Of a stretch of 64,000 bases of DNA, positions 25,201 to 46,200 are shown one piece after another. A program made the translations under genes and the position numbers. How positions within the stretch are numbered: the first letter of the stretch is position 1; the number at the start of each line of letters is the position of its first letter. The DNA is taken from NCBI RefSeq assembly GCF_963675165.1, contig NC_087384.1, positions 2,192,501 through 2,256,500 of the forward strand, given 5' to 3'. This DNA comes from Halichondria panicea (lineage: Eukaryota > Porifera > Demospongiae > Suberitida > Halichondriidae). The notes beneath the pieces are model-generated. The model was not told the DNA's origin. It did no database searches and saw nothing but the letters and a program-made list of their open reading frames with translations.

Positions 25201-28200
25201 CTCATCTTTTGAGCTTCAACGGAAGTCTGGGCTGCTAGTAAGTTCTGAGAAATACTGAATTTTGTTGTTTTTTGGTGGCAGTTATGTTAGGAATACAACT
25301 TTCGATTTTATGCTAGTTAAGGTCTGATTTTTGAGGAGCATGTACTACAATAGCATAGAATTCATCTGTACTAACTTACAGGAGCTAGACAAGTCTCATC
25401 TTTGCTAGAGCGGCCCTTCTTGTCAAAAATGGTGATTTTGCTCCGTTTTGCTACTTTTACTGACGTATGCAATGATATTCATTGATTTGTGACATCACAA
25501 ATCATCCTGTTGTTATTTGCTACATCCAAAGGTCATGTGATGTCTACCTGCAAATACACAGTTGGTGTTGGTCATTCTGTGTCACAGGGGCGTGGTAATT
25601 GAGCTTATTACGTAGCCAAATCGCCCCAAAAGTCATAAAAAGCACTGTTTTTGACAAGATGGGCCGCTCTAGCAAAGAAGAGGCTAGCCTAACTCCTGTA
25701 AGTTAGTACAGATGAAAAGTACACTATTGTAGTACATGCTGCTCAAAATCAGACCTTAACTAATATAAAATCGAAAGTTGTATTCCTAACATATTTGCCA
25801 CCAAAAAACAACAAAATGCAGTATTTCTCAGAACTTACTAGTAGCCCAGACTTCCGTTGAAGCTCAAAAGATGAGCAATATACTCAGGTACATGCACAAC
25901 AAATTTCAGATCTTAACTCAAACAAATAAGCTACTTCTATTCCTAACATATTTTCGGAAGTACACATCTTCAGACAGCCATTTTATACTGATGATGTCAT
26001 GTGATGTAACAGGTGGTGGTCCAATGGAAGCGCCAATAGTTGAACTTTCAGTACCTGCACTCAAATAGATCATATCACTTTTACTTTAGAAGATATGCCA
26101 CAAAATGTAAAAAATGTGTACCAAAAAAAAAAATCTACTCTCTTTGGTTGTTGCACTGTAGCTAATCTCTGAGATGTGTACAGTTAGATACACTCACCTC
26201 TTCTTGCATATCAACATTGGCTCCAGCATCGATTAGAAGTTCCACACACTTCAGGTGACCATTGTAACTGGCTGCCCAGAGAGGGGACTGACCCCACTGT
26301 ACATGTAGTACATGAGCAGTATGTTATAAAACAAGTGTTTGCCAGTGTAAACAAAAGATATGATTGTGATAATTATCACTAATGTTATTCATTTACAACT
26401 GCCAGTTAGAAAAAGGCAATGAATATAGTTACTGATTTTTATTCATTGCCTTTCCTGCTAGTTGCGGTTACAACAGCTAGTATCTGTGACGTAGGTCTGG
26501 AGGAATGCTTTTTGTGTACAGTACGTCTATTAGAGTTGCATACTCTTCCTAATGAACTCTTGTCAACGCTTATAAGGCAATTGCCTTATAGTTATTGGCC
26601 TACTAACCCTAACCTACGTACGCGCATGCATTTGATGAGCATGCTTTATTAATTACTCCATAGATGGAGCTGTAAAAAACAGATACAACATATATCGACC
26701 TGCTTACCGTATTACTAGAATATGTAGTACATGAGCAGTAGTATGTTACACCATAGATATAGATACATGTAGAACAATAAGAGGGATTAGAAACGAAAAC
26801 GTTTATGTGAAGCACTTCGCATTATAGGGTGTGGCTAAAACTACATTTATAGTCAGCATGCTCGTTACCTGTCTTGACTGCCATACAATATGCGAATTGA
26901 TCACTTTTAATGTTGATTATAAAGAGAATCAAGCTCTAAAAGGTCGACTAAGCAACTCAGCCACTATCACTATAAACAAATGAAAGCACCCGCGGGTGCT
27001 GATGCCTCGGTGAAGGTGTCAAAGCTACATAACATAATGCTAGCTTTATCAAGATGAACATTTTTGTTTTGCTGCATGCAGGCAGAATCACAGAGAAAGA
27101 GTGGGTATAATGATCGATATTTTTAATTTTGCTGAAGAGTGGGTAATGCTCGACGATGATTGTTGTTAAAAAGGATCAATGCCAACAGTCCAAGTCTAAT
27201 CAGCAGAATCTTGCAGCTCTAACTATTACGTGCATCCTCTATTATAGATGCAGCTGTAAAACACAGAGGCCAAAAACCAAACCGTAGACCTACATATCTA
27301 TACGAAAAACAAACCACATAAGCACCGCCATGACTATTTTAAACGCAAGTTTGGATTGGTCTGAGTGAATGTTTGGTTCTAAAAGGTACGCCACTATATC
27401 ATATAATTTTTGGCTCTGAAATCAATTACTGTAACTGACCTTGTCTTGAGTGTTGACTGTAGCCTTGGCTGCTAAGAGGACCCTCACCACCTCATCATGT
27501 CCATTGTTACTGGCTGCGTGGAGAGCTGTCAGGTTGTCCTGTATTAGAGTGAATATATACATTATTATATACAAGGAGCTTGCACGGTTTGAGCAAATAC
27601 ACTTCACGTACTAGTTAATGCACCGTTGCAAGTATACCGGAAGTAATAATTAGTGGGTGTTCGGAAATTCCAGACTCTTAAATAAATAGGACTATTCTTA
27701 GTGTAGTAGGTAGTTTATGCAGACGTTTCCTCCCGGAGGGACATTTAGGCTAATAACATAGAACACAACGAATATTCTTGCTGATCCATAAGAGATAATA
27801 TCAGCACAGATTTTATCTAGCACGTACGTAATTGTCTTTCAAAAACCATATACAGTTGCCCAATTATAATAATTCACCTACATGTACATATAAAAGTGAA
27901 TGAATCCTAGCAAGGGAGGCTACTATTTGAGTGCGGCCTTTATACAAGAGCGGCCTCTGATCGAGCATATACGGTACATGTAATATTCTTACTGATCCAT
28001 TTAAGAGACAATACCAGCACAGATTTTATCTAGCACGTACGTAATTGCCTTTCAAAAACCATATACAGTTGCGCAATTAACCTACAAGTACATAGAAAAG
28101 TGAATGATGGGTAAAGATCACGATTCTTAAAAGCAAATAACATGCGCAGGTCCAGGACACAGAAACAAATGGTACAGAATTAATGCTTATGATGAGAATA

Positions 28201-43200: not shown

Positions 43201-46200
43201 AAATTCCTCAGATTCTGGGGAACTTGTGCATTTGCACTATCACTTTGACAATAGATACCAAGCCCAGTTGTCGACATAGCGTTAAATTAGAGAGACTTAG
43301 GCTAATTTATTCATTACCCAAGATTGTGTAGATTATGTAGTGTTGTTAATGAGGTTCATCATTGCATGTGACGTCATGCGTCAATGTGTTTGGCTAGCTA
43401 GCTGCTGAAACTATTATACAATATCTTTAGCAACAAAAGCAGCTGGCTTAAAAACAAGGTTTTTTGCTGTTTAGGCCCTCAATAGATAGAGTATGTAAAA
43501 CACAGAGGCCAAAAACCAAACCGTAGACCTACATATCTATACAAAAAACAAACAACGCAAGTGTGGATTGGTCTGAATGTTTTGGTTCTAAAAGGTGCGC
43601 CACTATATCATATAATTTTTGGCTCTGAAATCAATTACTGTAACTGACCTTGTTCTGAGTGTTGACTGTAGCCTTGGCTGCTAAGAGGACCCTCACCACC
43701 TCATCATGTCCATTGCTACTGGCTACGTGGAGAGCAGTCCGGTTGCCCTGTATTAGAGTGAATATATACATTATTATATACAAGGAGCTTGCACGGTTTG
43801 AGCAAATACACTTCACGTACTAGTTAATGCACCGTTGCAAGTATACCGGAAGTAATAATTAGTGGGCATTCGGAAATTCCAGGCTCTTAAATGAATAGGA
43901 CTATTCTTAGTGTAGTATAAATTATAGGTAGTTTATGCAGATATTTCCTCCCGGAGGGACATTTAGGCTAATAACATAGAACACAACGAATATTCTTGCT
44001 GATCCATAAGAGACAATATCATCACAGATTTTATGTATAATACGCACGTAATTATCTTTCAAAAACCATATGCAGTTGCACAATTATAATAATTCACCTA
44101 CATGTACATAGAAAAGTGAATGATAGGTAAGGATCACTATTCTTATGAGAATGCAATACTAACAGTGGTATGAGCAATAAAACCTCACCTCCTCTTGGAT
44201 ATCAACTCGAGCCATAGCTACAATTAACACTTCAACTACCCTCAAGTGACCATTCTGAGCAGCAACATGCAGCGCAGTAGCTCCAGTCTGTACAGATTCA
44301 AGTAAGGAGTGATGAGAAGGTAAACACACACATCAGCTCACAGACCACGTTTTAGGTTAATACGCGTCACGACACACAACCAGGACATGACAAAGGAAAC
44401 TCTATGACTAGCTAATCTCTGAGATGTGTACAGCTAGATACACTCACCTCTGCTTGCATATCAACATTGGCTCCAGCATCGATTAGAAGTTCCACACACT
44501 TCAGGTGACCATCGAAACTGGCTGACCAGAGAGGGAACTGACCCAACTGTACATGTAGTACATGATCAGTAGTATGTTATACCATAGATATAGATACTTA
44601 TACCACACTTACGTCACCACTAATTGATCTCATTGGTCAACAGCTGTAGGATATATAGAATATTAGCATACAGCCCCAGGCATGCACAGTTTTTCAAGTT
44701 GTTTTTTAGTTTTTTCATTTGTTCAAGAAAGTAAGCAAAGAGAAAAGAGCCATGCTTGACAGTACTAAGACTCAAAGCGACGGCAGAAACAAGGAAGGTG
44801 CTCTCCAACAAGATGGCTAAGCTTCCATGGGTCCATGGGCGCGGTTTAGATACATTTTATCCAAGGAGAGCTTGCAACTCCAGTAGGGGACGTCGAATGG
44901 TCAAAGCTTGGACCAAGGAAGCTCTTGAGCATCTGTAGGAGTCAACATGTTGCTCAACTAGCTCTTTGACGGCTGCAAAATCCGGCATAGTCTTGTTCTT
45001 TTTTGCAGTCTGCATCGCGATTGAATTGTTGCTAGGGGGAGGTCCTTTTATAGTGCTACGGTCACGTGGTATAAGTCAGATATGCCACACCTACTCGGAG
45101 GATATGCACCCTATATATCCTCCGCTACCGTGGTTACATACCCCTCGGCTCCGCCTCGGAGTAACCACGGTAGCGGAGGATATATGGGTGCATATCCTCC
45201 TCTTAGGTGTGGTATATCCTATACATATAGAACAATATGAGGGATTAGAAACAAAAATGTTTACGTGAAACACTCCGCGTTATAGGCTGTCTAAAACTAC
45301 AAAGGATTATATTTATAGTCAGCATGCTCATTACCCATCTTGACTGCCATACAATGTGCTGTACATAGAATTGATTATTATGCTTCGGTGCGCATGCACA
45401 AGCGAGGTATACGGTAGTGTGTTTGTGTGTCTGTGTGTCTGTAGGCTGCTCAAGGATCAATGAAGTGCAAGTAAGAGTTTCTATAGGCTTCTAGTCATGG
45501 ATTTTAATTCGTGGATTTGCAAAATAATGCTTCATTCTCAAGTTATGCCTAGTTTTGCTTGCCTTTTCAGAAGAGCACGTAGCCAAACTTGTTTACCGAC
45601 TCTACTTAGTAGTTAGCTCTGCACGTAGCTGCAAGAGTGAGAAGAGAGCTGCAAGGCTCTGCTGATGGCAGCCATTAATTTTAGACTTGAATCTTGCCAT
45701 TGATCGATTTTAACAACAATCGTGGTCCAATCATTACCCACTCTTTTAGTTTGCATGCAGCAAATTGAAAAAAATACTGTTCATCATGTGCATTAGTAGC
45801 TTTATGTTAATTATGTAGCTTAGGCATCTCTACCGAGGCATCATGCAGCACCTGCGGTGCTTTCATAAAAGAAAAGAGAATCTAGCTCTAAAAGGTCGAC
45901 TAAGCAACTCAGCCACTATCACTAAACAAACTAAAGTGCAAACCCTCGTCTGGAGACGTGACATTATTATAAAGAAACCAAAAGAGTTATATAATGCAGT
46001 GCATGTATAGTGATGAATATCATGTATGACTTATTAAACTGTCTAGCACAGCAACTTAGGAGCTAATTTTAAAACCAGACTGGAGGCACGCGCACTGTGG
46101 ACTAGCCTGGAGTCTCATGCAGAGAGGCTCCTGGAGTAGGATCCCAGAGTCAGCTAACAGAGACAAACCAGACACAATTCTAGCTTTCTATTGTATCGAT

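What the first reader, a model, noticed from the sequence alone, without database searches (positions are those of the whole stretch)
26568..44597. Tandem genomic segments add ankyrin repeats to one gene, two exons at a time
Five segments start with the same GCTTATAAGGCAATTGCC block (26568, 32004, 36623, 39574, 42655). They are nearly identical through introns and transposons, and each carries one beta and one alpha ankyrin exon. Each such exon encodes one 33-residue repeat in 99 nt (one is 96 nt) and starts and ends in phase 0. Any number of segments can therefore be gained or lost without breaking the frame. This looks like a recent, probably copy-number-variable expansion of a recognition surface in an immune-type protein.
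Basis: seen in the sequence. Interest (0 to 1): 0.9.

Follow-up and report, generated by a model that had tools for sequence, protein, structure and literature searches.

The report
Hypervariable ankyrin exon arrays in animal
An animal genome, probably a sponge's, carries a cluster of genes whose ankyrin repeats come as interchangeable two-exon cassettes that vary sharply at a few likely binding codons, while the ends of the proteins change far less, which looks like a naturally evolved library of recognition receptors.

Summary
In detail: five blocks, 99/96-nt phase-0 ankyrin exons, longest segment matches 92-96% identical. The gene lies on the minus strand: N-cap ankyrin exon, alternating beta-alpha array, C-terminal ankyrins, weak ZU5 and Death-like exons. 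It is one of 15 related loci on contig C8 between 1.0 and 2.9 Mb. Of 76 alpha-core places, 75 were examined and all hold an open, AG-GT bounded exon. Four arrays read end to end have 3, 5, 7 and 8 beta-alpha pairs. The same few codons (1, 3, 8, 11, 32; also 12 or 10) are hypervariable in alpha and beta: pN/pS 1.9-2.1 in cross-validation, 0.3-0.5 elsewhere. In copies whose flanks differ by 0.5-0.6%, those codons differ by 15-16%; intron blocks chosen the same way differ by 0.5-1%. The ZU5 exon is protein-identical in five loci. Most tiles of the window array have their closest held relative in another gene. Best reading: a germline-diversified ankyrin-Death receptor family; fungal NLRs are the nearest known parallel. 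Variation between individuals, expression and ligands are untested.

The parts
47581..47670 (-). N-cap ankyrin exon SLLMEACDTGDVGVVQLALEGGADPNQANE, start of the array; upstream coding exons not identified
   Evidence: Ank 18.7 bits, below cut-off 21.1; 100% identical in 5 loci of C8, at least 93% in 12
44448..44546 (-). alpha exon 1 (99 nt)
44189..44287 (-). gamma exon (99 nt), near array start
43649..43747 (-). beta exon, pair 1
41488..41586 (-). alpha exon, pair 1
40566..40664 (-). beta exon, pair 2
38407..38505 (-). alpha exon, pair 2
37494..37589 (-). beta exon, pair 3 (96 nt, one codon shorter)
33808..33906 (-). alpha exon, pair 3
32875..32973 (-). beta exon, pair 4
28379..28477 (-). alpha exon, pair 4
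27440..27538 (-). beta exon, pair 5
26198..26296 (-). alpha exon, pair 5
24689..24787 (-). gamma exon, end of variable array
22353..22440 (-). C-terminal ankyrin exon (DGMTALHIACQEGHCEVVECLVERAHCDT); splice ends placed by eye
   Evidence: Ank 32.8 bits; sequence
21555..21656 (-). C-terminal ankyrin exon (splice ends placed by eye)
   Evidence: Ank 31.5 bits
21048..21194 (-). last ankyrin exon and linker (splice ends placed by eye)
   Evidence: Ank 22.4 bits
19275..19820 (-). ZU5-like exon, nearly constant between five loci
   Evidence: ZU5 17.6 bits, below cut-off 21; 147 aa 100% identical in 5 loci incl. the window, DNA 99.5-99.8%
15488..15860 (-). Death-like exon
   Evidence: Death 20.4 bits, below cut-off 22.6; relatives within 50 kb downstream of 13 of 15 C8 N-cap exons, window included
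26568..26585 (.). repeat block, segment 1
32004..32021 (.). repeat block, segment 2
36623..36640 (.). repeat block, segment 3 (1 mismatch)
39574..39591 (.). repeat block, segment 4
42655..42672 (.). repeat block, segment 5

Best explanation
This is one member of a clustered, germline-diversified receptor family. Each gene has a conserved start (N-cap ankyrin exon), a variable stack of ankyrin repeats made of interchangeable phase-0 exons in beta-alpha pairs, and a more slowly changing end (C-terminal ankyrins, in most loci a ZU5-like exon, and a Death-like exon). SHOWN: modular exons, different unit numbers in paralogous arrays, all examined exons open, hypervariability focused on a few codons, a ZU5 exon identical in protein in five loci, mosaic relationship between genes. 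INFERRED: (1) the repeats stack into one ankyrin solenoid whose variable codons line its concave binding face; (2) unequal recombination and gene conversion between arrays, using repeated introns and exons as homology, change repeat number and reshuffle variants; (3) selection keeps the binding codons diverse and removes broken copies; (4) ligand binding is passed through ZU5/Death to a cell-death or inflammatory response. The targets would be microbes, symbionts or foreign conspecific cells; I cannot tell which.
For: Variable codons: alpha 1, 3, 8, 11, 12, 32; beta 1, 3, 8, 10, 11, 32; overlap 5 of 6, P = 1.5e-4. pN/pS at positions chosen on the other class: beta 1.85 (bootstrap 1.45-2.59), alpha 2.06 (1.74-2.90); other codons 0.28 and 0.47. 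With flanks matched to 0.5-0.6%, exon centres differ 4.0-4.7% (variable codons 15-16%), six intron centres chosen by the same rule 0.5-1.0% (thresholds 0.01 and 0.015; at 0.03: 5.9%, 19.7% and 1.0-1.6%). Divergence spikes at codons 3, 8, 11, 32. Open exons: alpha 53 of 53 and beta 49 of 49 listed places in held C8 stretches, 20 of 20 further alpha, 2 of 2 on C22. Unit numbers 3, 5, 7, 8. ZU5 exon protein-identical in 5 loci, the other four differing from the window's by 1-2 of 441 nt. In a second cluster on C10, 14 of 20 sampled exons recovered, codons 32, 7, 3, 8, 11 rank highest. Five of 6 alpha and 4 of 6 beta variable codons align with the 10 positions that vary between five repeats of an engineered ankyrin binder, 6mol (P = 0.005 and 0.053). 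Mosaic.
Against: Over the whole exon pN is not above pS (0.053 vs 0.054 in 30 matched pairs); the excess is at the chosen codons only, and for alpha those were chosen on alpha itself. Third positions of other codons are also raised over introns (3.0-4.3% vs 0.5-1.0%), so selection alone does not explain the contrast; exchange of short exon tracts or locally raised mutation is needed. Gamma exons show no such signal (0.73). At the six DARPin positions I recall, beta gives pN/pS 0.68 and only 3 of its 6 variable codons match (P = 0.058). ZU5 and Death scores lie below Pfam cut-offs. In the listings used, 6 of 15 C8 loci have no ZU5 exon and 2 of 15 no Death-like exon within 50 kb, and one of the 9 ZU5 exons is only 34% identical. 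Exons broken beyond 3 mismatches in the core would have been missed. No expression, structure, ligand or population data.
Confidence: 0.64

Rival explanations
1. Neutral or concerted evolution of a repeat-rich gene cluster: arrays grow, shrink and convert because the segments are long repeats, and the variation has no recognition function.
For: Introns are shared between segments and genes; mosaic ancestry is widespread; most differences, intronic ones included, are between alleles shared with other copies.
Against: Neutrality predicts exon = intron divergence and random codons. Instead the variable codons stand about 13-27 times above intron centres, spike at single codons, other codons are constrained, and all 75 alpha exons examined are open.
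Confidence: 0.08
2. Exon-restricted hypermutation or templated exchange (short-tract conversion among several hundred donor exons, or RNA-templated patching) is the main generator of diversity, with selection only sorting the results.
For: Non-variable third positions in exons are raised to 3.0-4.3% against 0.5-1.0% in intron centres chosen the same way; silent sites 5.4% vs introns 0.8% in matched pairs; about 90% of variable-codon differences (58 of 64 alpha, 44 of 49 beta) use alleles seen at least twice elsewhere.
Against: First and second positions of the other codons stay at 1.1-1.2% and third bases of several variable codons are nearly fixed, so change is not indiscriminate. Intron differences are shared to a similar degree (0.73-0.84), so sharing does not discriminate. 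Among 20 pairs with identical variable haplotype (not all independent) none had both flanks diverged; 2 had one diverged flank.
Confidence: 0.2
3. A scaffold family of the ankyrin (ANK1-3) type whose repeats diversified for many cytoskeletal or membrane partners, without an immune role.
For: Domain order as in ankyrins (repeats, ZU5, Death; order recalled); ankyrin-1/-2 and engineered ankyrin binders are among the best PDB sequence matches of part of the array, with NompC.
Against: 15 clustered loci with variable unit number, conserved ends and codon-focused divergence do not look like scaffold evolution; one weak ZU5 exon was found here, where canonical ankyrins have two (recalled).
Confidence: 0.1
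4. The exons are alternatives, spliced Dscam-fashion, and diversity arises mainly by splicing.
For: Every array exon of the window is symmetric (phase 0, 99 or 96 nt), so any subset stays in frame.
Against: Regular beta-alpha alternation with recurring ends in the four arrays read end to end suggests ordered inclusion of all; no cDNA to decide.
Confidence: 0.15

Closest known systems
Fungal NLRs with highly conserved ANK/WD/TPR repeats (Podospora; PMC4986451, passages read; PMC12222747, abstract read)
   Same: Near-identical repeats, repeat-number variation, a few hypervariable codons per repeat (five ANK positions under positive selection, with one exception on the concave face), exchange within and possibly between genes, link to cell death.
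   Different: Here an animal; each array repeat is its own exon, hundreds to thousands of bases apart; no NACHT match in the cluster (NB-ARC not searched); ZU5-like and Death-like exons. That paper gives 0.8% of metazoan repeats as highly internally conserved.
Designed ankyrin repeat proteins (DARPins; PMC8683736 and PMC8229355, passages read)
   Same: Constant framework, capped stack, variable positions in each 33-residue repeat, on the concave face in DARPins.
   Different: Natural, two alternating module types; codon 32 varies here while codons 31 and 33, which vary in the binder 6mol, are conserved.
Animal ankyrins (ANK1-3; architecture recalled)
   Same: Ankyrin stack, ZU5, Death in that order.
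   Different: Single weak ZU5 found, many clustered copies, hypervariable codons.
Sponge NLRs (Dysidea avara, PMC12909245, passages read)
   Same: Large repertoire of receptor genes including Death-linked ones; this genome also has at least 102 NACHT matches.
   Different: None of the 102 listed NACHT matches lies in C8 1.0-2.9 Mb.
Lamprey variable lymphocyte receptors (recalled, not searched)
   Same: Modular repeat cassettes with variable binding faces and constant ends.
   Different: LRR, somatic assembly, extracellular; here germline ankyrin arrays.

Membership tests
Ankyrin-repeat protein | 33-residue repeats matching Pfam Ank | tested here: met
   The six ankyrin exons submitted score 22-35 bits, over the PF00023 cut-off 21.1; the N-cap exon scores 18.7, below it
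Canonical animal ankyrin (ANK1-3) | two ZU5 domains and UPA before Death (recalled) | tested here: inconclusive
   One ZU5-like exon (17.6 bits, cut-off 21) found; two ORFs downstream of it had no Pfam match; full gene model not available
Death-domain receptor/adaptor | Death domain over curated cut-off | tested here: not met
   20.4 bits against 22.6; I describe it as Death-like
ZU5 protein | ZU5 over curated cut-off | tested here: inconclusive
   Window exon 17.6 of 21 bits; a 71% identical relative, C14:4953436, overlaps a ZU5 hit at 26.5 bits, over cut-off
NLR | NACHT or NB-ARC domain | tested here: not met
   NACHT searched over the genome: none of 102 listed matches (102 of 265 candidates scored) lies in C8 1.0-2.9 Mb; three ORFs around the 5' end gave no Pfam match but Ank; NB-ARC not searched
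Repeat-diversified recognition receptor (fungal ANK-NLR mode) | excess amino-acid change at few codons per repeat | tested here: met
   alpha and beta exons; not gamma
Repeat-diversified recognition receptor (fungal ANK-NLR mode) | repeat-number variation | tested here: met
   between paralogous arrays only: 3, 5, 7, 8 pairs; between individuals not testable
Repeat-diversified recognition receptor (fungal ANK-NLR mode) | variable positions on the concave binding face | tested here: inconclusive
Immune receptor | binds non-self and triggers a response | not testable with these tools
   no binding or expression data

The most novel reading that the evidence does not exclude
An early-branching animal without lymphocytes runs a germline ankyrin-based variable receptor system, a natural counterpart of DARPin libraries: hundreds of interchangeable repeat exons with paratope codons kept diverse by selection and refreshed by exon-focused exchange between genes, giving each individual a different repertoire for microbes or for self/non-self recognition, wired to a Death-domain response.
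Probability: 0.35. Interest if true: 0.92.

Novelty: new variant of a known kind. Interest (0 to 1): 0.77.

Why it matters
How animals without adaptive immunity recognise many targets, and what encodes tissue compatibility in sponges, are open questions. Here a receptor candidate can be read from the genome codon by codon: which residues vary, which are framework, and how units are exchanged. It shows in an animal the repeat-diversification mode described for fungal NLRs, with each array repeat as a separate exon so that number and order can change without breaking the frame. It makes direct tests possible: long-read typing of arrays between individuals, grafting compatibility against array genotype, and ligand screens with recombinant arrays.

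Tried and rejected
Assembly artefact of one locus: rejected, the exons differ between copies. Simple reading 'exon diverges 7 times faster than intron because of positive selection': weakened, because pairs chosen by flank similarity inflate the contrast and silent sites rise too; replaced by the equal-selection control. DGR-like adenine mutagenesis: considered, not supported; variable codons include TCG/TTG/TGG and NNG/NNA sets, not AAY-derived ones. Whole-exon cassette transplant: little support. Allele-sharing test: inconclusive. Linkage between variable codons: detectable in 17 of 30 codon pairs at p < 0.05 uncorrected, very strong only for beta 10-11, so variants are not freely shuffled. 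Species identity: not established; one COX1-like fragment with two in-frame TGA, metazoan domains and many NACHT matches suggest a sponge, nothing more. Rows dropped: pairs with fewer than 380 aligned flank positions (435 of 1540 alpha and 654 of 1431 beta pairs kept); of 142 exons found, 128 fell in the three classes at 99 nt with enough flank; 6 of 20 C10 exons not recovered by my splice rule. The beta list was cut by the tool (151 places counted, not all shown), so 49 of 49 refers to listed places in held stretches. One of 76 alpha places (C8:7084821) was not examined. Papers: nothing describing hypervariable ankyrin exon arrays in an animal was seen in the listings; most subscription papers are not in that library. 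Passages of PMC8242945 and PMC12314368 gave nothing on this point.
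Full report
Observation. The five blocks are present (one with a mismatch) and exceed chance. Self-comparison shows direct repeats; the six longest matches (2.1-4.5 kb) are 92-96% identical, shorter ones to the fifth segment 86-90%. The gene is on the minus strand. Its array, in order of transcription, is alpha-gamma-(beta-alpha)x5-gamma; each exon is 99 nt (one beta 96 nt), AG...GT bounded, phase 0. Upstream lies an N-cap ankyrin exon (47581-47670); downstream three further ankyrin exons, a ZU5-like exon (19275-19820) and a Death-like exon (15488-15860), the last two 3.4 and 2.2 bits below Pfam cut-offs. 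Splice ends outside the array were placed by eye. Coding exons upstream of the N-cap were not identified. An open frame at 52727-53005 on the same strand resembles another locus's Death-like exon (about 68% over 63 aa; no Pfam match) and probably belongs to the next gene.

Family. The window is C8:2192501-2256500 of a 131.5-Mb genome in 39 contigs. The alpha core occurs 76 times (up to 3 mismatches), 70 of them on C8 1.0-2.9 Mb, 4 on C8 at 7.08 Mb and 2 on C22; the beta core 151 times, the listed ones on C8, C10, C17, C22. The N-cap exon matches 60 places, 15 of them on C8 between 1.0 and 2.9 Mb, five with identical protein. Of those 15, 13 have a Death-like and 9 a ZU5 exon within 50 kb downstream on the same strand (one of the 9 only 34% identical to the window's) in the lists. 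The ZU5 exon is 100% identical in protein (147 aa) in five loci including the window; the four others differ from the window's by 1-2 of 441 nt. Other loci of the cluster are less alike there (88-98%), and the Death-like exon is 100% identical in two loci, 98% in a third and mostly 62-75% in the rest, so 'constant end' holds only for part of the family.

Modularity. Four arrays read end to end have 3, 5, 7 and 8 beta-alpha pairs; three end in gamma before the C-terminal ankyrins, the 7-pair array lacks that gamma. All core places examined hold an open, AG-GT bounded exon: alpha 53 of 53 and beta 49 of 49 listed ones on held C8 stretches, 20 of 20 further alpha, 2 of 2 alpha on C22. Copies broken in the core itself would not have been found.

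Hypervariable codons. I held 57 alpha, 54 beta and 17 gamma exons with flanks. Amino-acid diversity concentrates at codons 1, 3, 8, 11, 12, 32 (alpha) and 1, 3, 8, 10, 11, 32 (beta); agreement of the two classes has P = 1.5e-4. Because choosing variable codons and then testing them is circular, I tested each class at positions chosen on the other: pN/pS 1.85 (1.45-2.59) and 2.06 (1.74-2.90), against 0.28 and 0.47 elsewhere; gamma gives 0.73. In several of these codons the third base is nearly fixed while the first two vary, as selection on amino acids predicts. In a second cluster on C10, 14 of 20 sampled exons were recovered and codons 32, 7, 3, 8, 11 vary most. By the alignment to an engineered ankyrin binder (6mol), five of six alpha and four of six beta positions fall among the ten where five of that protein's repeats differ from each other (P = 0.005 and 0.053). 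The six DARPin library positions as I recall them match four (P = 0.005) and three (P = 0.058); at those positions alpha gives pN/pS 1.90 and beta 0.68.

Exon against intron. In independent pairs chosen for similar flanks, exons differ 5% and introns 0.8%, but silent sites differ as much as replacement sites (pS 0.054, pN 0.053), and part of the contrast comes from choosing pairs by their flanks, since similarity decays with distance along the DNA anyway. I therefore chose pairs in the same way around intron blocks. At thresholds 0.01 and 0.015, with flanks at 0.3-0.6%, six intron centres differ 0.5-1.0%, the exon 4.0-4.7%, its variable codons (the alpha set, used for both classes) 15-16%, its other first and second positions 1.1-1.2%, its other third positions 3.0-4.3%; at 0.03 the exon differs 5.9% and intron centres 1.0-1.6%. 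Codon by codon, 3, 8, 11 and 32 stand out (0.16-0.31) between codons mostly at 0-0.07 (15 pairs per class). So there is codon-focused selection, plus an excess of third-position differences in exons that selection alone does not explain; short-tract exchange among many donor exons is my preferred cause, raised local mutation the alternative.

Exchange. Of 45 400-bp tiles across the array (26.4 to about 44.4 kb), 44 have matches both in another held gene and elsewhere in the window; the other gene is closer in 38, the window in 4, with 2 ties, often at 99-100%, and the closest one changes along the array among four loci (1664k, 1723k, 2037k, 2435k). There is more held sequence outside than inside the window, which favours the former somewhat. 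Variable haplotypes are mostly shared only by very recent copies: 20 identical pairs, of which 2 have one diverged flank. Linkage between variable codons is detectable in 17 of 30 codon pairs (p < 0.05 uncorrected), very strong in one.

Mechanism. Shown: modules, unit numbers, open exons, codon spikes, the near-constant ZU5 exon of five loci, mosaicism. Inferred: a concave variable surface, recognition, Death-domain signalling. The nearest described parallel is fungal NLR repeats, where ANK repeats vary in number and five positions show positive selection, mapped with one exception to the concave face (PMC4986451, passages). No listed NACHT match lies in the C8 cluster, so this is not an NLR by that test. 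It works like such receptors; membership of a named immune family is not shown.

Limits. One assembly; no reads, cDNA, structures or relatives. Species unnamed; a sponge is likely but unproven.

Noticed in passing
C10 about 4.3-6.9 Mb; C17 about 1.9-2.2 Mb: Further clusters with related beta and N-cap ankyrin exons; the sampled C10 beta exons vary at nearly the same codons.
   Followed up: partly
C14 about 4.4-6.2 Mb: Second large cluster of ZU5-like exons, 68-79% identical to the window's.
   Followed up: no
whole genome: 102 NACHT and 148 Death matches among those scored (102 of 265 and 150 of 503 candidates scored): a very large innate repertoire.
   Followed up: no
C8 5.78-6.14 Mb: Several Death-like exons of the window's type are followed about 0.9-1.8 kb downstream by a second exon that passes the Pfam Death cut-off, perhaps paired Death domains.
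   Followed up: no
window 61742-63869 (+): Open frames of a degraded retroelement; one has weak matches to retroelement-type aspartyl proteases, below cut-off.
   Followed up: no
window 24916-25439 and 25638-26161: 92% inverted repeat pair, foldback-like element inside the gene.
   Followed up: no
window 54364-55188: Tandem repeat, unit roughly 80-90 bp, self-matches 84-94%.
   Followed up: no
window 2651-3508 and 14094-14958: 97% identical dispersed repeat.
   Followed up: no
C1:5280527-5280718: COX1-like fragment with two in-frame TGA, probably a nuclear mitochondrial copy from an organism reading TGA as Trp.
   Followed up: no
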